This document shows positions 31,734-43,433 of a stretch of DNA of 64,000 nt, in pieces. The stretch's first letter is position 1. The number at the start of each line of letters is the position of its first letter. Source of the DNA: Hymenobacter baengnokdamensis. GTDB lineage: Bacteria > Bacteroidota > Bacteroidia > Cytophagales > Hymenobacteraceae. Under the pieces are notes generated by a model, which saw only the letters and a list, made by a program, of their open reading frames with translations, was not told the DNA's origin and did not search any database. The DNA lies in the NCBI RefSeq assembly GCF_008728635.1, contig NZ_CP044285.1, forward strand, positions 3,410,001 to 3,474,000, read 5' to 3'. Both the position numbers and the translations under genes were made by a program.

Positions 31734-32669
31734 TTAATATATTGAAACGACTTCCTCACCCGCTGCATTACGGCTAGCCCGATACATGCCTTCCGAGTTG
31801 AAGGGCAGTGCCAGCTGGCCAGCGGCATCTACGGCAATAAGCCCGCCCTCGCCGCCAATGGGAGCCAGCTTGTCGTGCACCACCACGCGGCAGGCTTCGG
31901 CCAGCGAGAGCCCTTTGTATGCCATCAGGCAGGCGATATCGTGGCCGGCTACGGCCCGAATAAAAAACTCACCGTGCCCGGTACAGCTGACGGCGCAGCG
32001 CTCGTCGGCCCAGGTGCCCGCCCCGATAAGCGGCGCGTCGCCGATGCGCGAGTAGCGCTTATTGGTCATGCCGCCGGTGCTGGTGGCGGCGGCCAGGTGG
32101 CCCCGCACATCGCGGGCTACGGCTCCCACGGTACCTTTTTTCCAGTTGGGGTCGGGCACTGAGGCAGTTGCGGCAGCATGGTCGAGCTGCACCCGGCCGG
32201 CCGCAATAGCCTCCTGAAGCTGGTCGAAACGCTGCTGGGTAAAAAAATAGGCGGGCGGCTGCAAGGGCAGGCCGTGCTCGCGGGCCAGCTCATCGGCCCC
32301 AGGGTAAGCCAACAATACGTGCTCCGTGGCCTCCATCACGAGCCGGGCGGCCCGGATAGGATTCTGGACCGTGCGCACGCCGGCTACGGCTCCGGCGCGG
32401 CGCGTGGCCCCGTCCATAATCGCAGCATCCATCTCATGATGGCCATCGTGGGTGAACACGGCCCCGCGCCCGGCATTAAAGAGCGGGCAGTCTTCGAGGC
32501 TGCGCACGGTAGCTTCCACGGCATCGAGTGCGGGCGCGCCCCCGGCCAGCAGAGCCGTGCCGGTAGCCAGGGCAGCCCGCAGCGCCGCGCGGTAATCGGC
32601 TTCGAGGGCCGGGGTGAGCGCGGTACGGGCAATGGTGCCGGCACCGCCGTGCAAAGCAAGAGCGAACAT
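31734..32669 (-). CDS. Isoaspartyl peptidase / L-asparaginase (Ntn hydrolase)
   Basis: Cleaves beta-aspartyl dipeptides and asparagine after self-processing. 311 residues, plant-type (IaaA) family. The autocatalytic and nucleophile Thr is in KKGTVGAVARD (about T179). ALHGGAGTI starts the alpha subunit; GRGAVFTHDGHHEMDA and STGGMTNKRYSRIGDAPLIGAGTWAD are signature blocks. Complete, with no signal peptide. It could finish cyanophycin breakdown begun by the nearby cyanophycinase. Confidence 0.92.
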   Translation of the reverse strand: MFALALHGGAGTIARTALTPALEADYRAALRAALATGTALLAGGAPALDAVEATVRSLEDCPLFNAGRGAVFTHDGHHEMDAAIMDGATRRAGAVAGVRTVQNPIRAARLVMEATEHVLLAYPGADELAREHGLPLQPPAYFFTQQRFDQLQEAIAAGRVQLDHAAATASVPDPNWKKGTVGAVARDVRGHLAAATSTGGMTNKRYSRIGDAPLIGAGTWADERCAVSCTGHGEFFIRAVAGHDIACLMAYKGLSLAEACRVVVHDKLAPIGGEGGLIAVDAAGQLALPFNSEGMYRASRNAAGEEVVSIY

Positions 32670-33481: not shown

Positions 33482-34111
33482 ATGAACTTACGCGCACTTA
33501 TCAGCCAGGGCGAGGGCGAACGGCTCGAATTCAAGAAGAAAACTACTCACCCTACCCGCATTGCGCGCACGCTGGCCTCGCTGGCCAACACGCACGGCGG
33601 CCAGGTACTGGTAGGCGTCGACGATGATGGCCGCGTGGTGGGCGTGCGCGACGCCGAGGAAGAAATGTTTGTGCTGCGCGAGGCGGCTGCCCACTACATC
33701 GACCCACCCCTGACGCTGGAATTTCGGGAAATTGAAACGGAGGGCGAGCATATCGTCTTGGTAGTCAAGGTAGCCGAAAGCCACAACAAGCCGCACCGCG
33801 CCCAGATAGCCCCCGGCGAGTGGCGGGGCTACGTGCGCGTTCGCGACGAAAGCGTGCAGGCCAGCGCCCTCACCGAGAAGGTTCTGGAGCGCGAGCAGCC
33901 CGCGGCCCGACTCGAAAAAATTCCGCTTAACAAGGATGAGCTGCGCGTGCTCGACTACCTCAAAACCTCCCAGCCGCGCATTACGGTAGCGCAGTACACC
34001 AGGCTTATCAACGTGAGCCGCCGCCGCGCCTACCGCACCCTCATCAAGCTCGTGCTGCACGGCTACCTGCGCTACCACGACAAGGAAAAGGAACCTTACT
34101 ATACGTTATAG
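33482..34111 (+). CDS. AlbA_2 (Schlafen-type) domain HTH protein
   Basis: A 209-residue protein. The N-terminal AlbA_2 domain (about residues 1-120) has GEGERLEFKKK, TLASLANTHGGQVLVGVDDDGRVVGV and the charged strand IVLVVKVAES. The C-terminal 60 residues resemble a winged helix (LRVLDYLKTSQPRITVAQYTRLINVSRRRAYRTLIKL), suggesting DNA-binding regulation. It follows DUF3127 by 118 bp on the same strand; a functional link is not certain. Confidence 0.83.
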   Translation: MNLRALISQGEGERLEFKKKTTHPTRIARTLASLANTHGGQVLVGVDDDGRVVGVRDAEEEMFVLREAAAHYIDPPLTLEFREIETEGEHIVLVVKVAESHNKPHRAQIAPGEWRGYVRVRDESVQASALTEKVLEREQPAARLEKIPLNKDELRVLDYLKTSQPRITVAQYTRLINVSRRRAYRTLIKLVLHGYLRYHDKEKEPYYTL

Positions 34112-34595: not shown

Positions 34596-36119
34596 TTAGG
34601 CAGGGGGCAAAGCCGGCCAGTAGCGCTCGCGCAGAATGCGTAAGTGATGCTGCTCGTGGCCGGTTACTATATAGAGCAGCGACCGCACGGTAACCGGGCC
34701 ACCGTTGGCGCGCCCGGCCCGGTCGAGCTGCCCGCCATTGAGGCCGCCGAAGAAAGCCAGCGTAGCTGCCCGCACGGCCTGGTACTCGGCCAGCAAGTCG
34801 CTCATTGGCCGGTCATTGGCTTCGCTATGAGCTGCAAACTCATTTTCGTCGAAGCCCGGCAATTCCTGGGCGTCGGCACGGGCAAAGCGCAGGGCACGGT
34901 ACGTAAAAATGCGCTCGGCATCCAGAATGTGCAGCAGCACTTCCTTGGGCGTCCATTTGCCGGGGGCATAGCGCATCAGCGCCTGGGCTTCGGTGAGGCT
35001 GGCCAGGTCGCGGTGCAGCTCGGCAGCCTGCTCGCGCAGCTGGACCAAGGGGTCGGCCCCGGCCGGAATAAGGTCGATATACGCCTGGGTGTAGGGCAGG
35101 TAGGTGCCGGGCGCCGGGCGCACTTGGGTAATAGCAGGAGCAGCAGACATGGCGGCAAAGGTAGCCGCCCGCCGCAGATACCGAAACTTCAGGCTGGCCG
35201 CACCCTGGGGGCGGCGGGTTAGCGCCAACCCACCAAGCTGGGTACGCAGGGGTAGCTTTTCGGTAGCGGCCACCTGCGGCGCTTCCAAGCCCCTGGTGCC
35301 AAATGCCCAGCGCAGAAAATCGGGCATGATAGCGCCCCAGGTGCCGGGGTGGTGATGGCCACCCGGCACCTCCACGTAGCGCGCTGCGGCCGGGGGCAAG
35401 CCCTGGGCCGCCAGGGCCGCGAGCATATCCAGGGTATCGTCGATGGCATCGATAATGCCATTGTTGTTGCGGTCACTGGTTTCGTCGTCGGTGCCGGCTT
35501 GCAGCCAGAACTGCTGGCCCGGCCGGGCCGGCCGGGCCGCTACCAGGCTGTGCATCAGGCGGTCGGCGTCGGTATAGCCGTCGTGCAGCCCCCTCCCCCG
35601 CCACCAGAACGAGCCGCTGAATACGCCGGCGCGCAGAAATGCCTCGGGGTGATGCCAGGCCAGGTCGAAGGCCATCAGGCCGCCCAGCGACATACCGGCC
35701 ACGGCTGCCTGGGCTGGGTCGGCGCTGGCGTGGTAGCGGCCCTGTACGTAGGGCAGCAACTCCTTGAGCATAAACGTGGTGTAGCGCCCGGCGCGGCTGC
35801 CCCGGCCCAGGTAATCGGGGCGCGCCGCCACGCCATACTCCTGCAGGCGGTCGGCCGCGTGAATAGCAACTACCACGAACGGCCTTACCTCACCGGCCCG
35901 AAACATCCGGTTGAGCGTAGCCGGCAACTGCAGACGCGCCAGGTCCTGGCCATCATTCAGATACAGTACCGGATACGGGGTAGCTGCCCGGCTCGAAAAA
36001 CCCGGCGGCAGCACCACGTCGAGGCGCACCACGCGCCCCAGCGCCACCGAAAATAACGACTCGTCGTGGCGCACGGCTACCGTGGTGCCGCGGGGCGATT
36101 GAAAGCGGGAAAAGGCCAT
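34596..36119 (-). CDS. Esterase-D-like hydrolase fused in frame to a DinB-family domain
   Basis: One open frame of 507 residues. Residues 1-275 are an alpha/beta-hydrolase esterase (PF00756 type): VLPPGFSSRAATPYPVLYLNDGQ, nucleophile in AGMSLGGLMAFD, and HHHPGTW late. A junction of about 45 residues looks non-domain-like. From ATG 35150 (184 residues) the frame encodes a DinB-like helical domain with GKWTPKEVLLHILDAERIF and VTGHEQHHLRILRERYW, whose His residues bind metal. A TACCTTTG promoter element sits 6 bp before ATG 35150, so DinB may also be made alone. The start ATG 36119 is preferred over an upstream in-frame ATG at 36149. Confidence 0.75.
   Translation of the reverse strand: MAFSRFQSPRGTTVAVRHDESLFSVALGRVVRLDVVLPPGFSSRAATPYPVLYLNDGQDLARLQLPATLNRMFRAGEVRPFVVVAIHAADRLQEYGVAARPDYLGRGSRAGRYTTFMLKELLPYVQGRYHASADPAQAAVAGMSLGGLMAFDLAWHHPEAFLRAGVFSGSFWWRGRGLHDGYTDADRLMHSLVAARPARPGQQFWLQAGTDDETSDRNNNGIIDAIDDTLDMLAALAAQGLPPAAARYVEVPGGHHHPGTWGAIMPDFLRWAFGTRGLEAPQVAATEKLPLRTQLGGLALTRRPQGAASLKFRYLRRAATFAAMSAAPAITQVRPAPGTYLPYTQAYIDLIPAGADPLVQLREQAAELHRDLASLTEAQALMRYAPGKWTPKEVLLHILDAERIFTYRALRFARADAQELPGFDENEFAAHSEANDRPMSDLLAEYQAVRAATLAFFGGLNGGQLDRAGRANGGPVTVRSLLYIVTGHEQHHLRILRERYWPALPPA
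35156..35163 (-). promoter_or_regulatory. Internal -7 element TACCTTTG before the DinB part
   Basis: Reads TACCTTTG on the minus strand, 5 bp before ATG 35150. A weak TTTC sits 19 bp upstream, at the Bacteroidota -33 position. This is strong positional evidence for separate DinB expression. Confidence 0.55.
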
Positions 36120-36187
36120 TGGCTTGCAAATAAACATACCTGCCGGCATTCCAAAGAAAACTTGGCCGTTCAGTTTTTCTGCTTAGT

Positions 36188-36940
36188 TTGCGGCCGGTTC
36201 CGGCGCATGTCATCCCCGCCGGGCCTTGCCCCTTGCACGAAGAATACCGCCGCTTTTATTCCCAGCATTTGGGCGTTGACATGGAAATGCTGGTCGTGGG
36301 CGACTACGGCTACCCGGTTATTATTTTCCCGACTTCCAACGGCCGCTACTTCGAGGCCCGCGACTTTCACCTCACCGACTCGGTACGCTGGTTTGTGGAA
36401 AACCGGCTGCTCAAGCTCATCTGTATCGACAGCGGCGACAAGTGGAGCTGGTACGCCAAGCACTTGCACCCCGGCACCCGCGTGCACAATCACGGCCTCT
36501 ACGACCGCATGATAACCGACGAGCTGGTGCCGCGCTTCCAGCAGGAGTGCCAGGTAGATAAGGTAGGCGTAGCCGGCTGCTCCTTAGGCGGTTATCAGGC
36601 CCTAAACTTCGCCTTTCGCCATCCCGACCAGGTAGCGCATCTTTTCTCGATGGGGGCTTCGTTCGACATTCGGATGTTTCTGGACGGGCACTACGACGAG
36701 CAGGCCTATTTCCACAATCCGCCCGATTATATGCCTGATGCGCAGAATGCTGACTTCTATAAAATGAACATCATTCTGGGTACTGCCGAGCACGACTTCT
36801 GCAAAGAGGCCAATTACCGGATGTCGGATATTCTGGCCCGCAAAGGCATTGCGCACCGCCTCGACGTGCGCCCCTACGGCACCCACGACTGGCCCGTGTG
36901 GCGCGATATGTTTCCGGACTATGTATCCTCTATCTTTTAA
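36188..36940 (+). CDS. Alpha/beta-hydrolase esterase family protein
   Basis: A 250-residue cytosolic serine hydrolase. The nucleophile is in GVAGCSLGGYQALN (about residue 137). The acid residue is likely in GTAEHDFC and the His in GTHDWPVWRDMFP. The family is esterase-like (PF00756), with a typical early DMEMLVVGDYGYPVIIFPTSNG. The start is uncertain: TTG 36188 gives 250 residues, while TTG 36233 gives 235 and fits family N-termini better. It is the first gene of the ligase cluster, 63 bp before the ATP-grasp gene. Confidence 0.78.
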   Translation: MRPVPAHVIPAGPCPLHEEYRRFYSQHLGVDMEMLVVGDYGYPVIIFPTSNGRYFEARDFHLTDSVRWFVENRLLKLICIDSGDKWSWYAKHLHPGTRVHNHGLYDRMITDELVPRFQQECQVDKVGVAGCSLGGYQALNFAFRHPDQVAHLFSMGASFDIRMFLDGHYDEQAYFHNPPDYMPDAQNADFYKMNIILGTAEHDFCKEANYRMSDILARKGIAHRLDVRPYGTHDWPVWRDMFPDYVSSIF

Positions 36941-37003
36941 ACCGCTTCTTCCGTAGAAGTAGCGCACTTACCTACACCTTCGCACTTACGCTCAGCTTTC
37001 ACC

Positions 37004-38182
37004 ATGAAAAAAATCGGCATCTTGTTCGGCCAGGAAAATACCTTTCCCCAGGCTTTTGTAGACCGCGTCAACCAGAAGGCCGTTGATGGCATCACGGCCG
37101 AGTTTGTCCGGATTGAGGAGGTCGAGCAGGCCGTAGCCACCGACTACGCGGTTATTATTGACCGCATTTCGCAGGACGTGCCCTTTTACCGCGCCTTCCT
37201 CAAAAATGCTGCCCTCACGGGCACTGCGGTGATTAACAACCCCTTCTGGTGGAGCGCCGACGAGAAGTTCTTCAACAATGCCCTGGCCGTGCAGCTTGGC
37301 GTGCCGGTGCCCAAAACCCTGTTGCTGCCCAGCAAAGCCCGCCCCGACGATACGAGCGAAAACTCGTTTCGTAATCTGGCGATGTTCGACTGGCATAAGG
37401 CCTTCGAAAAAATTGGCTTCCCGGCTTTTATGAAGCCCCACGCCGGGGGTGGCTGGAAGAGCGTGTACAAGGTTGATAACCCCGAGGAAGCGTGGCGCGC
37501 CTACGACGAAACCGGCCAGCTCGTGATGCTGTACCAGGAGGCTATCGACTTCGACGACTACTTCCGCTGCTACTGCCTCGGCGGCAAAGACGTGCTCATT
37601 ATGCCTTATGAGCCGCGCAATGCCCCTCATCAGCGCTACCAGACGGAAATGAAAACCCAGGGCGAGGCCGGCGAAAAGCTGCTTGCTACTATCCGAGACT
37701 ATGTGCTGCGCTTGTGTCAGGGCCTGGGCTATGACTTTAACACCGTGGAATTTGCCGTGCGTGACGGTATTCCGATTGCCATCGATTTTGGCAACCCCGC
37801 TCCCGATGCCGACATCAACTCGGTTGGCGCCGAAAACTTTGAGTGGGTGGTAGAGCACGCGGCCAACCTGGCCATTGCGCGCGCCCAGGCCCAGCGGCCG
37901 GGCCAGGACAACCTGACCTGGGGCACGTTTGTGCAGAAATCGGCCCGGCAGCAATCTGCCTTCCCGGCTACGAAAGGTCCAGTAGAGGTTGGGACTGCGG
38001 TGCACGAAACCAACGACTTAGGCACCAATCCACCCAAGGCCGCTAAAAAAGCGACCACTTCTACCAAACCAGCAGCCTCCGGCATTGTAGCCCCCGCCGG
38101 TGAAGTGCCCAAGCCAACTGCTGCTCCTAAAGCCGCCAGCTCAGGCGCTAAGCCCAAAAAACCAACAACTAAAAAATCGTAA
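37004..38182 (+). CDS. RimK-like ATP-grasp ligase
   Basis: A 392-residue ATP-dependent carboxylate-amine ligase by fold. The ATP-grasp parts are visible: AFMKPHAGGGWKSVYKV (ATP Lys and Gly-rich loop, about 145-160), LYQEAIDFDDYFRCY and VEFAVRDGIPIAIDFGNP with the metal-binding Glu and Asn. Residues after about 320 are a Pro/Lys/Ala-rich disordered tail (KPTAAPKAA and similar) ending KKPTTKKS. Substrates are unknown; by neighbours it makes a peptide-like bond. A terminator follows, so it may be split from the next gene. Confidence 0.82.
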   Translation: MKKIGILFGQENTFPQAFVDRVNQKAVDGITAEFVRIEEVEQAVATDYAVIIDRISQDVPFYRAFLKNAALTGTAVINNPFWWSADEKFFNNALAVQLGVPVPKTLLLPSKARPDDTSENSFRNLAMFDWHKAFEKIGFPAFMKPHAGGGWKSVYKVDNPEEAWRAYDETGQLVMLYQEAIDFDDYFRCYCLGGKDVLIMPYEPRNAPHQRYQTEMKTQGEAGEKLLATIRDYVLRLCQGLGYDFNTVEFAVRDGIPIAIDFGNPAPDADINSVGAENFEWVVEHAANLAIARAQAQRPGQDNLTWGTFVQKSARQQSAFPATKGPVEVGTAVHETNDLGTNPPKAAKKATTSTKPAASGIVAPAGEVPKPTAAPKAASSGAKPKKPTTKKS

Positions 38183-38207
38183 CAGCTAGTTATTGCGCGT
38201 GCTTTTT

Positions 38208-38245
38208 AAAAGGGCTGCCCTCGCCATCAGGAGGCAGCCCTTTTT
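38208..38245 (+). terminator. Stem-loop after the ATP-grasp gene
   Basis: AAAAGGGCTGCC pairs with GGCAGCCCTTTT around a 13-nt loop, with a T-tract. The ligase cluster continues on the other side. Confidence 0.85.
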
Positions 38246-38308
38246 CTGGTACTTGCGCTAAACAGGTGGCCGGCGTTTAACCTACTTTCATTACATATAC
38301 TTTTAGCT

Positions 38309-39412
38309 ATGTCCCGCCCCGTTTTCACCCTCGGCATCGAGGAAGAGTTTCAAACCATCGACCCCACGACGCGCGACCTGCGCTCGCATATGTCGAAGAT
38401 TGTGGAGGACGGCAAGATTACGCTCCACGAGCAGGTGAAGGCCGAAATGCACGAGTCGGTAGTGGAAGTAGGAACGGTTATCTGTAAAAATATTGAGGAG
38501 GCCCGCACCGAAGTACTGCACCTGCGCCGCCAGGTAGTGGAGCTGGCCGACCGCGTGGGGCTGAAAATAGCGGCGGCGGGTACGCACCCCTTTTCGCGCT
38601 GGCAAGACCAGCCTATTACGCCCGACGCCCGCTACGACAAAATAGTGGAAGAATTGCAGGAGGCTGCCCGCTCGAATCTGGTTTTTGGAATGCACGTCCA
38701 CATTGGTATCGAAAACCGTGATTTGGGCGTGTATATGATGAATGCGCTGCGATATTTTTTACCCCACCTGTTTGCGCTCAGTACCAACTCTCCTTTCTGG
38801 GAAGGCCGCGAAACAGGTTATAAGTCATTCAGAACTAAAGTATTCGAGCGGTTTCCGCGCACTGGCATTCCCGATTATTTCAGCAGTGCATCTGAATACG
38901 ACGAGTTTATTGCGCTGCTTATCAAAACTGGCTGCATTGATAACGGCAAGAAAATATGGTGGGATTTACGGCTACACCCATTTTTCGACACCATCGAATA
39001 TCGCATCTGTGATATGATGATGCGGCCTGACGAAACTATTGCGGTAGCAGCCGTGATGCAGGCCCTGGTAGCCAAGATTTACAAGCTTAAGTGCCAGAAC
39101 CTGAACTTCCGGCTTTACCGCAGCTCGCTCATCAAGGAAAATAAATGGCGGGCTGCCCGGTATGGTATTGATGGCCAGCTAATTGATTTTGGTACTGAAG
39201 AAGAGAAGCCGGCTCGCCAGCTTATCTTGGAATTACTCGATTTTGTGGATGACGTGCTCGACGAGCTGGGTAGCCGCCACGAGGTGGAATATATTCTTAA
39301 AATGCTTGAGATGGGCACCGGTGCCGACCGCCAGCTCGCCGTATTTCAGCAGACCGGCGACCTGACCAAAGTAGTGGATTATATCCTGAGCGAAACGATT
39401 TATGGGCTGTAA
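38309..39412 (+). CDS. GCS2-type carboxylate-amine ligase (YbdK family)
   Basis: Glutamate-cysteine-ligase-like enzyme that joins a carboxylate to an amine using ATP. 367 residues. TLGIEEEFQTIDPTT (residues 7-20) is the N-terminal signature, VFGMHVHIGI (His metal/substrate) lies near 130, and YRICDMMMRPDETIAVAAVMQ is the C-terminal block. YbdK-type proteins are weak gamma-glutamylcysteine ligases, so the natural substrate is open. It is 73 bp upstream of the amidotransferase gene, suggesting a shared transcript. Codons in the middle (about 38740-39090) are AT-richer. Confidence 0.88.
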   Translation: MSRPVFTLGIEEEFQTIDPTTRDLRSHMSKIVEDGKITLHEQVKAEMHESVVEVGTVICKNIEEARTEVLHLRRQVVELADRVGLKIAAAGTHPFSRWQDQPITPDARYDKIVEELQEAARSNLVFGMHVHIGIENRDLGVYMMNALRYFLPHLFALSTNSPFWEGRETGYKSFRTKVFERFPRTGIPDYFSSASEYDEFIALLIKTGCIDNGKKIWWDLRLHPFFDTIEYRICDMMMRPDETIAVAAVMQALVAKIYKLKCQNLNFRLYRSSLIKENKWRAARYGIDGQLIDFGTEEEKPARQLILELLDFVDDVLDELGSRHEVEYILKMLEMGTGADRQLAVFQQTGDLTKVVDYILSETIYGL

Positions 39413-39484
39413 GCAGCCCGTTGCCCGTATTTAGTAGCTATGCCGGTAAATAATCGGCAAATTTCTGAAAGTCACCCAGAGTTT

Positions 39485-40309
39485 ATGCCTACCATAAGAA
39501 TCGCCCTGCTAGATATGTATAATAATTTCCCGAATGAGGGAATGCGTTGTATTCGCCAGCTATTACAACAAGCCGAAGCCGCTAATCATGTCCGTTTTGA
39601 GGTCGATACCTTCAACGTTCGGGCAACTGCCGAACTACCTGACCTCGAATATGATATCTATATTTCTACAGGCGGGCCCGGCAGTCCGCTGCCATCGAAT
39701 GAGCCGTGGGAGCCGCGCTACTTCGATTTTATTGATGCCTTATTTGCGTATAATGCTACGGCCGAGCGCAAGAAGCACGTATTATTAATCTGTCATTCCT
39801 TTCAGCTGGTAAGCCGGCACCTGGGGCTGGGAGAAATCAGCAAGCGTAAGTCTACCTCTTTCGGCGTGTTGCCTGTGCACCTGACGCCGGCCGGCCACGC
39901 CGACCCCATTTTTGCCCAGCTGCCGGAGCCTTTTTACGCGGTTGACTCCCGCGATTATCAGCTTACCGATTTGCTGCCCGAGCGCCTGCGCGAGCTGGGC
40001 GTAGACGTGCTGTGCCTCGAAAAGGAGCGGCCCCACGTTCCGTTGGCGCGCGCCATTATGGCGCTGCGATTTTCACCCGAGATACTCGGTACGCAGTTTC
40101 ATCCGGAGGCTGATGGGGAAGGCATGCTGCGCTACATGCGCACCGACGAGCGTAAGCAGCAGGTTATCACAGCGTATGGCGAAGAAAAATACCACGAGAT
40201 GGTGCGCCTGCTGGCTACTCCCGAGGCCATTGCGCTAACTGAGGCGACGATAGTGCCCTCTTTTTTACGGCGGGCCCTGGCAGCCACTAGCGAGCCTGTA
40301 CTTGCCTGA
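39485..40309 (+). CDS. Class I glutamine amidotransferase domain protein
   Basis: Stand-alone glutaminase domain, 274 residues, releasing ammonia from Gln for a partner. The nucleophile Cys is in LLICHSFQLVSRHLG (about C103), and the catalytic His and Glu are in LGTQFHPEADGEG (about H205). ATG 39485 is preferred: residues before it from ATG 39440 are not conserved-looking and the Rossmann-type start IRIALLDMYNNFPNEG follows at once. It sits between GCS2 and the ATP-grasp-like protein, so an amidation partnership is likely. Confidence 0.85.
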   Translation: MPTIRIALLDMYNNFPNEGMRCIRQLLQQAEAANHVRFEVDTFNVRATAELPDLEYDIYISTGGPGSPLPSNEPWEPRYFDFIDALFAYNATAERKKHVLLICHSFQLVSRHLGLGEISKRKSTSFGVLPVHLTPAGHADPIFAQLPEPFYAVDSRDYQLTDLLPERLRELGVDVLCLEKERPHVPLARAIMALRFSPEILGTQFHPEADGEGMLRYMRTDERKQQVITAYGEEKYHEMVRLLATPEAIALTEATIVPSFLRRALAATSEPVLA

Positions 40310-40387
40310 TTAAGAATTTAGCCCCGCATTTAGCAGTGGCGCGAACCGGCTTGCGCGCGTACTTATTTCTTTCTTCCCGTTGCCGTT

Positions 40388-41578
40388 ATGATTCCTGCTC
40401 CGCGTCAGTTATTTAATGCTGCTTTTTCTCCGCAGCGCTACCAGGAAATGCTGGCCGATATCAACCAGCAGCTTCCCGGCCAGCTCGACTTCAGAGTAGC
40501 CGAAACGCCGGTTTTCGTACCTGCCGAATTACGCGATAAACTAATCCGGGCCGGCCAGGATATTATCCGCGTAATTCAGCAGCCTACTTTCAAGCAGCTC
40601 ACGGAAGGCGCTATTCCCGACAGGCAGCGCGTGCCGAATGAAGATGCCCACGCTGAGTTTTTGACTTTCGATTTTGCAGTATGCCGCAACAACGCCGGCG
40701 AGTTGGAGCCGCAGCTAATTGAAATGCAAGGCTTTCCTTCGCTCTATGCGTTTCAGGCCTACCTACCCGAATTATTTGCCAGGCACTACCCAATTGCCGA
40801 TTCAGTTTCACCGTTTATCGACGTGCCCGATTCGGATGCTTATAAAGCAGCGCTTAGAAAGCTGATTCTGGCGGATGAAAACCCAGAAAACGTAATTTTG
40901 CTGGAGCTTTTTCCGGAGCGCCAGAAGACCCGCATCGACTTTGCGTTATCGAAGAACTACTGGGGCATCGAAGCCGTTTCGCTGCCCGATATACGCAAGC
41001 GGGGCAGGCAACTATTTTATGAAAAGGACGGCCGGGAAATCGTAATTAAGCGAATTTATAATCGTATTATTTTTGACGAGCTGGCCAGGTATCCAGACCT
41101 GAACCCGGAATTTAATCTGACTGATGAGGTCGATGTAACCTGGGTGGGCCACCCCAACTGGTTTTTTCGAATCAGCAAATATACGCTCCCTCTTATTTTC
41201 AGCGAGTTTGCTCCGCCCAGCTACTACTTACACGAGTTGAATACGTATCCGGCCGATTTGGAAAACTACGTTTTGAAGCCGTTGTTTTCGTTTGCTGGCG
41301 CGGGCGTGCGCCTGCACATTACAGCCAGCGACCTCGATGCGCTCCCCGACAAGCATAATTATTTATTGCAGCGTAAAGTAAAATACGAGCCCGTAGTGCA
41401 GTCGCCCGATGGCTTGGTGAAATGCGAAATCCGGCTGCTCTACATCTGGCCGCCTACTGCCCCTGAGCCCAAGCTGGTGGCAGGTCTGGCCCGCCTGAGC
41501 CGCGGAGAGATGATTGGGGTAGATTTTAATAAAAATATGGATTGGGTAGGCGGCACTACTCCTTTGTTTGAAAAATAA
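40388..41578 (+). CDS. ATP-grasp-like protein of unknown function
   Basis: A 396-residue protein without signal peptide. Its second half has features of an ATP-grasp domain: NYVLKPLFSFAGAGVRL (Lys and Gly-rich loop, about 294-310), LLQRKV, then CEIRLLYIW and RLSRGEMIGVDFNKN with Glu, Arg and Asn metal-ligand spacing. EMQGFPSLYAFQAY is a conserved-looking N-terminal block. The order recalls glutathionylspermidine-synthase-type ligases. The call rests on weak motifs and on its place in the cluster. Confidence 0.6.
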   Translation: MIPAPRQLFNAAFSPQRYQEMLADINQQLPGQLDFRVAETPVFVPAELRDKLIRAGQDIIRVIQQPTFKQLTEGAIPDRQRVPNEDAHAEFLTFDFAVCRNNAGELEPQLIEMQGFPSLYAFQAYLPELFARHYPIADSVSPFIDVPDSDAYKAALRKLILADENPENVILLELFPERQKTRIDFALSKNYWGIEAVSLPDIRKRGRQLFYEKDGREIVIKRIYNRIIFDELARYPDLNPEFNLTDEVDVTWVGHPNWFFRISKYTLPLIFSEFAPPSYYLHELNTYPADLENYVLKPLFSFAGAGVRLHITASDLDALPDKHNYLLQRKVKYEPVVQSPDGLVKCEIRLLYIWPPTAPEPKLVAGLARLSRGEMIGVDFNKNMDWVGGTTPLFEK

Positions 41579-41665
41579 AGCACTCGCTAGGTTAAGCTGG
41601 CGCGCCAACTTAGGCGGTAAGGCTGCGTATCAGGTTGCCATTGCTTTTATCTAAAGCCAACCACC

Positions 41666-42157
41666 ATGTCGACTCTTACTGAGCAGGGCCTCCGAATTTC
41701 CAAGAATGCAATTTTCAATTTATTTATTCGTAGAGCTGGCCGGCTGCTGGGCCGGCCGTTTAAAGTTATTACTATTCTTAATGAAACCGCTGACAAACTA
41801 GCGGATGAAAATAGTAAAGCTAATAAATTCGAGCAGCTTTTTGCTGCCGGAGCAACGCTTATCCGACTGGTTCGCAGCTACGTTACCGGAGAATACCGGG
41901 AAATCAAGACCAGTACGATTGTGGCTGGGCTCGCCGTGTTACTTTACGTACTGAGCCCGATTGATTTAATCCCTGATTTTATTCCGGTGCTGGGCTTTCT
42001 GGACGACCTGAGCTTAATAAGTTGGTTTGCCGGAAAATTTCAGGCAGAATTGGGGCGATTTCGTGATTGGGAAGGCCGGAATGCGCACCTGCAGGCGTCG
42101 GCTCCGGCCCAGGGCGACCGTAGCCTGCCCGCCACGGCAGAGTTGGGCCATTCCTAA
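41666..42157 (+). CDS. DUF1232 (YkvA-like) membrane protein
   Basis: A 163-residue protein. The diagnostic DUF1232 block VLLYVLSPIDLIPDFIPVLGFLDDL is at about residues 93-118, a hydrophobic hairpin that probably inserts in the membrane. An N-terminal helical, basic region precedes it and the last 30 residues are low complexity. Its role is not known. It follows the ligase cluster by 88 bp on the same strand. Confidence 0.85.
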   Translation: MSTLTEQGLRISKNAIFNLFIRRAGRLLGRPFKVITILNETADKLADENSKANKFEQLFAAGATLIRLVRSYVTGEYREIKTSTIVAGLAVLLYVLSPIDLIPDFIPVLGFLDDLSLISWFAGKFQAELGRFRDWEGRNAHLQASAPAQGDRSLPATAELGHS

Positions 42158-42240
42158 ATACGTTATCGTAGCCTTTGCTAGCCAGACCTCCCGCTTTTTC
42201 TACGCGCTGCGAGGCCCGAGCAATCCGCCTTATTTTGCTT

Positions 42241-42540
42241 ATGCCGACCTTTTCTGTTTCCCTGCGCCTGCCGGCTATATTCGACGAAGCATTTTTTGCA
42301 CTTATTCCGCAGCACCGCACTTTTATTAATCGCTTAATTGCTGAGCAGGTTATTCAGGCTTACGCCATTACTGCTGACCGTGGGCGCGGCTGGGTCGTGC
42401 TCAATGGGGAAGATGAACTAGCCGTTCGACGCATTGTAGAAAGCTTTCCCCTCTACGCTTTTTTGGAGATACTTGAAATAGACGAGCTGTTTATTTTTGA
42501 CATCGCCGCCGCCCAGTTTCCCACTATCAGCCTGAATTAA
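42241..42540 (+). CDS. Small hypothetical protein (YciI/muconolactone-isomerase-like fold possible)
   Basis: A 99-residue cytosolic protein starting at ATG 42241; the upstream in-frame extension to 42175 has no coding character. The sequence alternates short strands and helices (PTFSVSLRLP, VIQAYAITADRGRGWVVLN, VRRIVESFPLYAFLEILEIDELFIFD), as in dimeric alpha-beta barrel proteins such as YciI. No active-site residue can be named. Confidence 0.6.
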   Translation: MPTFSVSLRLPAIFDEAFFALIPQHRTFINRLIAEQVIQAYAITADRGRGWVVLNGEDELAVRRIVESFPLYAFLEILEIDELFIFDIAAAQFPTISLN

Positions 42541-42587
42541 CTATATTCGGCAGATTCAATAGTAGTTGCACCTCACTTAGTTACGCA

Positions 42588-43433
42588 GTGATTATCCGCT
42601 CCTTATTTTTTGCCGGCTTATTTATCTGCAGCTCAGCCGGCTGGGCGCTGGAGGCAACTCCTATTACCACGCAGCAGCTCACTACGGGGCTGATTTCGGC
42701 TATTCAGGGGCTCAAAACACTGCGCGTCGCTACTGAGCTGCGCGAGCGCGTCGGCACGAGTACAACGCACGACTACACCCAAATGAAGCTTGCCTTCAAC
42801 CCCTATCGCGTATACCTGAAAAACCAGAAAGGGGTGGAAGTATTGTACGTAACCGGGCAGAACGACAATGAGGCCTGGGTGTATCCGGCCGCTTTCCCCT
42901 ACATCACGCTGAGCCTTAACCCAGCTGGTACTTTAATGCGCAAAGGCCAGCACCACACGGTTTTGCAGGCCGGCTTTTCCTTAATTGCCAACCTGCTGGG
43001 TGGTCCCAATGGCCGGGGCGACAACGCGTTCAGCCAGTCGTTTCGCTATGTGGGCGATACTACCATCCAAGGGGAGCGCGGCTATATCTTGCGTTCCGAC
43101 TACCCTCAGTTTCGCTATATTGCTTATCGGGTTGGCAAAAATGAAAGTATTGAATCGATAGCAACTCATTTCAGCTGCGGCGAATACCGGATTATCGAAC
43201 GCAACAAGCTAAGTGCTGATAGCAAGCTCAGCGAGGGCCAGGTACTGCAAGTACCTACTGCCTATGGCCGGCGCGTATTAGTAACGGTAGAGGCAAAAAG
43301 CTACCTACCGACTTCCGTCACAGTATATGATGACCGCGGCTTATATGAGAAATATATGTTTTCTGCTATTATAGCCAACCAGCCAATTTCTCCGGCCGAG
43401 TTTAGCAAAGGCTACAAAGGCTATAAACTCTGA
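42588..43433 (+). CDS. Exported DUF1571-like protein with an inserted LysM domain
   Basis: A 281-residue exported protein with a GTG start. A short signal peptide (FFAGLFICSSAGWA) precedes the DUF1571-type region (LKTLRVATELRERVG, MKLAFNPYRVYLKNQKGVEVLYV). A LysM motif, YRVGKNESIESIATHFSCGEY to LSEGQVLQVPTAYG (about 182-225), interrupts it. The C-terminal part (LVTVEAKSYLPTSVTVYDDRG) resumes the DUF1571 pattern. LysM implies peptidoglycan binding. Its stop is next to a 52-bp palindrome arm. Confidence 0.78.
   Translation: MIIRSLFFAGLFICSSAGWALEATPITTQQLTTGLISAIQGLKTLRVATELRERVGTSTTHDYTQMKLAFNPYRVYLKNQKGVEVLYVTGQNDNEAWVYPAAFPYITLSLNPAGTLMRKGQHHTVLQAGFSLIANLLGGPNGRGDNAFSQSFRYVGDTTIQGERGYILRSDYPQFRYIAYRVGKNESIESIATHFSCGEYRIIERNKLSADSKLSEGQVLQVPTAYGRRVLVTVEAKSYLPTSVTVYDDRGLYEKYMFSAIIANQPISPAEFSKGYKGYKL

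What the first reader, a model, noticed from the sequence alone, without database searches (positions are those of the whole stretch)
36188..41578. Five-gene cluster with three ligase-type enzymes and a glutaminase: candidate undescribed amide-bond pathway
Seen: an esterase, a RimK-like ATP-grasp ligase, a GCS2 carboxylate-amine ligase, a stand-alone class I glutamine amidotransferase and a second ATP-grasp-like protein lie head to tail on one strand, with intergenic gaps of 63-130 bp, one of which carries a stem-loop. Known: ATP-grasp and GCS2 enzymes form peptide-like bonds and class I glutaminases supply ammonia. Inference: a pathway building or amidating a small peptide, amino-acid conjugate or polymer. 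No adenylation, PKS/NRPS or RiPP precursor gene is present. The disordered C-terminus of the first ATP-grasp could itself be a substrate or scaffold.
Basis: partly seen in the sequence, partly recalled or inferred. Interest (0 to 1): 0.85.

Follow-up and report, generated by a model that had tools for sequence, protein, structure and literature searches.

The report
Widespread, uncharacterised peptide-ligase gene cluster
A set of genes for three bond-forming enzymes and several bond-cutting enzymes stays together in many related bacteria, and most likely builds and trims a small glutathione-like molecule that has not yet been identified.

The parts
34596..36149 (-). second esterase (PF00756) fused to a DinB_2 domain; divergent from the cluster
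   Evidence: PF00756 99.9 bits and DinB_2 75 bits; a related esterase divergently within 1.5 kb upstream of EST in 49 of 56 named loci and 9 of 24 phylum-draw loci that hold EST
36188..36940 (+). EST, alpha/beta-hydrolase of the PF00756 'putative esterase' family; start uncertain, perhaps 36233
   Evidence: PF00756 44.5 bits; nucleophile Ser132 in 18 of 20, Asp203 in 20 of 20, His233 in 18 of 20
37004..38182 (+). RIMK, RimK-fold ATP-grasp ligase
37922..38179 (+). low-complexity C-terminal tail of RIMK (86 residues after W306)
   Evidence: pLDDT under 50 for residues 327-386; tail 30 aa or longer in 11 of 25 sequences
38208..38244 (+). stem-loop in the RIMK-GCS2 gap, 12 exact pairs, 3' arm ends in T residues; perhaps a terminator or attenuator
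   Evidence: not listed by the terminator scan; in 11 of 11 Hymenobacter loci the same gap folds into a hairpin of different sequence, without shuffle control
38309..39412 (+). GCS2/YbdK-type carboxylate-amine ligase
   Evidence: PF04107 229.8 bits; PRK13515 equivalog 536.4 vs cut-off 371; PDB 1tt4 and 1r8g (YbdK) E about 2e-52
39440..40312 (+). GAT, stand-alone class I glutamine-amidotransferase-like protein; start may be 39485
   Evidence: PF00117 33.1 bits; C118, H221, E223 in 22 of 22
40388..41578 (+). CPG, circularly permuted ATP-grasp of the glutathionylspermidine synthetase / glutathione synthetase fold

Best explanation
The locus is one functional unit that makes and trims a small amide-bonded molecule without ribosome or NRPS. 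Proposed order (inferred): GCS2 activates the side-chain carboxylate of glutamate (or a similar acid) as an acyl phosphate and joins it to an amine, giving a gamma-glutamyl-type dipeptide. RIMK activates a free carboxylate of that or a related intermediate and adds an amino acid. CPG, with the fold of glutathionylspermidine synthetase and eukaryotic glutathione synthetase, activates the terminal carboxylate and caps it with an amino acid or amine. GAT acts as a cysteine amidase that trims or recycles the product, as the amidase domain does in E. coli glutathionylspermidine synthetase/amidase. The two PF00756 hydrolases cut an ester of the substrate, product or a carrier form. Shown: genes, folds, conserved catalytic residues, conserved order, co-occurrence. 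Inferred: substrates, reaction order, the hydrolytic role of GAT, the role of the esterases, the product.
Against: No substrate-binding residue was assigned; the product is unknown. CPG lacks two features of the GspS site: R316 is A/Q/T/V/I and N332 is Gln in all 33, and the PF03738 score is below cut-off (14.3 vs 29.3). Of 60 CPG genomes, GCS2 is missing from 4, RIMK from 2, GAT from 21. Against a GAT-CPG pair: of 39 genomes with both, 12 have GAT away from CPG (G031, G033, G035, G051, G066, G070, G116, G124, G126, G148, G178, G184; places). The esterase nucleophile is lost in 2 of 20 sequences. GAT's triad would serve ammonia supply as well as hydrolysis. P values ignore shared ancestry.
Confidence: 0.47

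Rival explanations
1. Ammonia-supply model: GAT releases ammonia from glutamine and CPG or RIMK uses it to form a terminal amide.
For: Triad C118/H221/E223 in 22 of 22; PF00117 over cut-off; a GAT hit lies in the neighbourhood of CPG in 74 of 80 named and 26 of 58 phylum-draw loci.
Against: GAT absent in 21 of 60 CPG genomes and away from CPG in 12 of the 39 that have both; an M29 peptidase occupies its place in 2 of 58 loci; known enzymes of CPG's fold use amino acids or polyamines as amine (recalled, and PMC12568646 passages for Cp1B, homoglutathione synthetase and YgiC/YjfC).
Confidence: 0.22
2. Protein or ribosome modification: RIMK extends the C-terminus of a protein, as RimK does on RpsF, and the other enzymes extend or remove that tag.
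Against: The two other ligases resemble small-molecule enzymes; RIMK scores far below the rimK_fam cut-off (31.7 vs 143.4).
Confidence: 0.12
3. A stand-alone low-molecular-weight thiol that replaces glutathione or bacillithiol (GCS2 as gamma-glutamylcysteine ligase, CPG as a glutathione-synthetase-like enzyme).
For: GCS2 and CPG belong to the fold families of the two glutathione ligases; a DinB_2 domain with a weak YfiT bacillithiol-transferase hit is fused to the divergent esterase.
Against: A BshC-family match is present in 196 of 198 genomes, the window's own included, so a replacement thiol does not seem needed (the other bacillithiol genes were not searched); a DINB hit is seen in 13 of 80 named loci.
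Confidence: 0.12
4. Siderophore-type metabolism: the esterases release iron from a conjugate, as enterochelin esterase does.
For: The divergent esterase's best NCBIfam hit is enterochelin esterase PRK10439 (51.6 bits, cut-off 222).
Against: The score is far below cut-off. None of the recurring neighbours that I scanned is an adenylation enzyme or receptor, but most recurring families were not scanned.
Confidence: 0.04

Closest known systems
E. coli glutathionylspermidine synthetase/amidase (Gss), YgiC/YjfC peptide-spermidine ligases, trypanothione synthetase
   Different: Sequence below the PF03738 cut-off; R316 and N332 equivalents replaced; the amidase is a separate class I GATase and not always beside CPG; two further ligases in the locus
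Glutathione biosynthesis (GCS2-type gamma-glutamylcysteine ligase + eukaryotic-type glutathione synthetase)
   Same: Same two fold families, GCS2 and a circularly permuted ATP-grasp
   Different: A third, RimK-fold ligase plus GAT and esterases; a BshC (bacillithiol) gene already present; no evidence for Cys or Gly as substrate
E-64 pathway ligase Cp1B (PMC12568646, passages read)
   Different: Fungal; partner is an ANL enzyme; no GCS2, RimK or GATase named in the passages read
Predicted ATP-grasp/amidoligase neighbourhoods of Iyer et al. 2009 (doi 10.1039/b917682a; recalled, not held)
   Same: Surveys ATP-grasp and related amidoligases by gene neighbourhood, circularly permuted ATP-grasps included (recalled)
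   Different: I could not read it; whether this exact cluster is in it is not known to me

Membership tests
Glutathionylspermidine synthase family (PF03738) / glutathione synthetase superfamily, for CPG | circularly permuted ATP-grasp fold over the full length | tested here: met
Glutathionylspermidine synthase family (PF03738) / glutathione synthetase superfamily, for CPG | PF03738 score over the curated cut-off | tested here: not met
   14.3 vs 29.3 bits for the window protein; 12 of 33 sequences hit at E<=1, best 3.7e-4
Glutathionylspermidine synthase family (PF03738) / glutathione synthetase superfamily, for CPG | Mg/ATP residues equivalent to GspS D318, E330, K498, K533 (residue roles recalled) | tested here: met
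   D95, E112, K264, K297 in 33 of 33; alignment with YgiC, YjfC, Gss
Glutathionylspermidine synthase family (PF03738) / glutathione synthetase superfamily, for CPG | R-x-D ... E-x-N motif (GspS R316, N332; Cp1B R139, D141, E163, N165 per PMC12568646) | tested here: not met
   A/Q/T/V/I at the Arg position, Gln at the Asn position in 33 of 33
Glutathionylspermidine synthase family (PF03738) / glutathione synthetase superfamily, for CPG | glutathione and spermidine as substrates | not testable with these tools
   needs enzyme assay
YbdK-type GCS2 carboxylate-amine ligase, for GCS2 | PF04107 and an NCBIfam equivalog over cut-off | tested here: met
   229.8 vs 21; PRK13515 536.4 vs 371
YbdK-type GCS2 carboxylate-amine ligase, for GCS2 | gamma-glutamylcysteine ligase activity | not testable with these tools
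   needs enzyme assay
RimK family alpha-L-glutamate ligase, for RIMK | RimK-type ATP-grasp fold | tested here: met
RimK family alpha-L-glutamate ligase, for RIMK | TIGR00768 score over cut-off | tested here: not met
   31.7 vs 143.4 bits
Class I glutamine amidotransferase, for GAT | Cys-His-Glu triad and PF00117 over cut-off | tested here: met
   33.1 vs 22.8; C118/H221/E223 in 22 of 22
Class I glutamine amidotransferase, for GAT | a synthetase partner that uses the ammonia | tested here: inconclusive
   a GAT hit near CPG in 74 of 80 and 26 of 58 loci, but GAT absent in 21 of 60 CPG genomes
Bacillithiol replacement thiol pathway | found in genomes without bacillithiol genes | tested here: not met
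   BshC family in 196 of 198 genomes, G000 included; other bacillithiol genes not searched
Graspetide RiPP pathway | precursor peptide gene in the locus | not tested
   ORFs under 80 aa were not searched

The most novel reading that the evidence does not exclude
Bacteroidota and related Chlorobi/Kapabacteria lineages make a still unknown gamma-glutamyl-type peptide or peptide-polyamine conjugate, a third branch beside glutathionylspermidine and trypanothione. It would be built by GCS2, a RimK-fold ligase and a new circularly permuted ATP-grasp family with a Q-for-N, Arg-less active site, coexist with bacillithiol, and be recycled by a dedicated amidase and paired esterases.
Probability: 0.25. 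Interest if true: 0.85.

Novelty: new variant of a known kind. Interest (0 to 1): 0.62.

Why it matters
Genes kept in a fixed order across several families of a phylum, with different enzymes filling the same slots, point to a metabolite that matters to these bacteria and that, as far as I could search, no one has named. If it is a glutathione- or polyamine-type conjugate, it would add a class of small molecule to bacterial redox or polyamine chemistry. It would also supply stand-alone amide ligases of use for biocatalysis. Patchy presence within one genus (63 of 101 genomes) suggests that it is dispensable and so testable by deletion and metabolomics.

Tried and rejected
Considered and set aside. 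Chance arrangement: rejected, conserved order and co-occurrence. RIMK tail as substrate: unlikely, variable. Replacement thiol: weakened by BshC in 196 of 198 genomes. Plasmid spread: no CPG match in the plasmid collection at E<=1e-5. Promoter patterns: sigma-70-type 4 found against 5.1 in shuffles of 36000-42700; Bacteroidota-type 1 in the whole window, at 878-909, against 0.65. Sequence alone hardly placed CPG: no Pfam hit at E<=0.01; a profile against PDB sequences gave YgiC at E 0.0099; a profile-profile comparison with YgiC/YjfC aligned 63 columns, probability 38%, E 0.00033. The full-length match rests on the structure model.

Literature: ten searches of the held PMC library listed no paper whose title or abstract start describes this cluster. 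Read as passages only: PMC4431377, PMC12568646, PMC8939145, PMC11036162, PMC12506659. Other papers were seen as search listings only. Iyer et al. 2009 is not held and may contain part of this.

Limits of the counts. For GAT I dropped 20 genomes whose best hit was 36.9 bits or less (70 listed, 50 kept; none of the 20 is a CPG genome); for GCS2 and RIMK all listed genomes were kept, distant ones included. EST and the divergent esterase were not searched genome-wide. Of 11 genomes with RIMK and GAT but no CPG I fetched 9. Of the 60 CPG genomes I fetched wider neighbourhoods for 58: the window's own was at hand, and the split one, G066, was left out. Alignments A1-A4 hold 33 of 59, 25 of 34, 22 of 27 and 20 of 25 sequences at hand (window plus the lists). 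Genomes of other phyla were not searched: the attempt failed.
Full report
WHAT IS THERE. The window is part of a 4.43 Mb single-contig genome; its closest named relatives are Hymenobacter. I call them EST, RIMK, GCS2, GAT and CPG. Pfam places EST in PF00756, GCS2 in PF04107 and GAT in PF00117, all over cut-off; RIMK and CPG have no Pfam hit at E<=0.01. NCBIfam puts GCS2 over the cut-off of the equivalog PRK13515 'carboxylate-amine ligase' (536.4 vs 371), RIMK only weakly in rimK_fam (31.7 vs 143.4), and CPG nowhere. GCS2, RIMK, GAT and CPG each have one match in this genome; EST was not searched genome-wide.

CONSERVATION. In 80 named loci found through CPG, 56 have EST-RIMK-GCS2-GAT-CPG in that order and on that strand, some with other genes in between. 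These were the best 80 of 582 relatives, so close relatives are over-represented. In 58 neighbourhoods from an even draw over the phylum the exact order is seen in 15, with shorter versions such as EST-RIMK-GCS2-CPG or RIMK-GCS2-CPG in others, and CPG without the rest in some. Of 198 genomes in that draw, 60 have CPG, 62 GCS2, 72 RIMK and 50 a strong GAT. Shared and discordant: CPG/GCS2 56 and 10; CPG/RIMK 58 and 16; RIMK/GAT 49 and 24; all three ligases in 54, all four genes in 34. The P values there (1e-15 to 1e-37) ignore shared ancestry. The three ligases co-occur even where the genes are scattered: in families f21, f23 and f27 every genome with CPG also has GCS2 and RIMK except G144, which lacks RIMK. 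GCS2 is missing from 4 of 60 CPG genomes, all of family f8. In the window's genus 63 of 101 genomes have CPG and 62 of 101 RIMK, and all 62 are among the 63; the one exception, G224, is 82% complete. The other genes were not searched across the genus.

A SIXTH GENE. The divergent gene at 34596-36149 is a PF00756 esterase fused to a DinB_2 domain. A related esterase lies divergently within 1.5 kb upstream of EST in 49 of the 56 named five-gene loci, and in 9 of 24 EST-bearing loci of the phylum draw. A DINB hit is seen in 13 of 80 named loci.

MODULES AND SUBSTITUTIONS. In G190 the locus is split into GAT-CPG and EST-RIMK-GCS2 on two contigs (L033, L181). But of 39 genomes with both CPG and GAT, 12 have GAT elsewhere, so the two are not always a pair. 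Eleven genomes have RIMK and GAT but no CPG. In 9 of 9 that I fetched, a protein of about 450 aa, K7, lies between RIMK and GAT; the two scanned hit PF14403 'circularly permuted ATP-grasp type 2', one above cut-off (37.5 vs 32), one below (25.8). A PF00756 esterase of another subfamily (K6) is found there in 6 of 9, and EST in 5 of 9. So a circularly permuted ATP-grasp seems to be a kept slot that different families can fill. GAT is missing from 21 of 60 CPG genomes. In L050 and L074 an M29-type peptidase stands between GCS2 and CPG; in 9 of 58 loci an Amidohydro_3-like protein is directly upstream of CPG, and in L067 one lies between GCS2 and GAT (the domain was scanned in L084 and L067). Hydrolases of three kinds thus occur at or near this place.

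MECHANISM. Ligases of these three fold families activate a carboxylate as an acyl phosphate and join it to an amine (established knowledge; for Cp1B shown by ADP release in PMC12568646). GCS2 would make a gamma-glutamyl-type bond, RIMK would extend it, CPG would cap it. GAT with CPG resembles, as separate proteins, the E. coli glutathionylspermidine synthetase/amidase, where a cysteine amidase domain is fused to the synthetase (recalled; the annotation of gss names both). Ammonia supply is not excluded, since the triad is intact in 22 of 22. The esterases imply an ester somewhere in the pathway; 2 of 20 EST sequences have lost the nucleophile. Only the parts list, folds, residues and conservation are shown; substrates, order and product are inferred.

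RNA AND CONTROL. The RIMK-GCS2 gap (126 nt) folds with z -2.33, 4 of 200 shuffles as good, with 12 exact pairs at 38208-38244. In 11 of 11 Hymenobacter loci the same gap folds into a hairpin, with different sequences; this was not compared with shuffles. Four of these 11 have a perfect stem of 10 or more pairs. The whole window has 14 such stems against 0-3 in three block shuffles, so such hairpins recur in this genome. It may be an internal terminator or attenuator, though the terminator scan with its shorter loop limit did not list it. No promoter pattern stood out.

WHAT IT IS NOT. Probably not a replacement for bacillithiol: a BshC-family match is in 196 of 198 genomes. No plasmid match in the collection searched. 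I searched no ORFs under 80 aa, so a small precursor gene is not excluded.

NOVELTY. All enzyme folds are known; the combination, the CPG family and the product are, as far as ten searches of the open library go, undescribed. The survey most likely to mention the neighbourhood, Iyer et al. 2009, could not be read. I rate it a new variant of a known kind.

Noticed in passing
34596-36149 (-): Esterase fused to a DinB_2 domain; weak hit to YfiT bacillithiol transferase, 33.8 vs cut-off 160.
   Followed up: partly
38208-38244: Hairpin inside the operon; in 11 of 11 Hymenobacter loci the same gap folds into a hairpin of different sequence (no shuffle control).
   Followed up: partly
41666-42157 and 42588-43433 (+): DUF1232 protein and DUF1571-LysM protein follow the cluster; each is found in 11 of 80 named loci, all Hymenobacter by the rows and the titles.
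   Followed up: partly
L059:6637-9237 (+): CPG lies in one open frame of 867 aa whose first part looks, by eye, like a sodium:solute symporter; in L060 a symporter (PF00474) is a separate gene directly upstream. Fusion or missed stop not tested.
   Followed up: no
G224, G241 (CPG) and G260, G277 (RIMK): Gene split into two matches in these genomes of the same genus: decay or assembly error.
   Followed up: no
31734-32669 (-): By eye an isoaspartyl-peptidase/asparaginase-like protein upstream of the cluster; no profile was run.
   Followed up: no
33482-34111 (+): SLFN_AlbA_2 domain with a weak C-terminal HTH_IclR hit below cut-off.
   Followed up: no
L170:10136-11311 with L061, L063, L069, L172, L176: A further ATP-grasp protein (cluster k8; PF13535 scanned in L170 only) lies near this locus in six neighbourhoods.
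   Followed up: no
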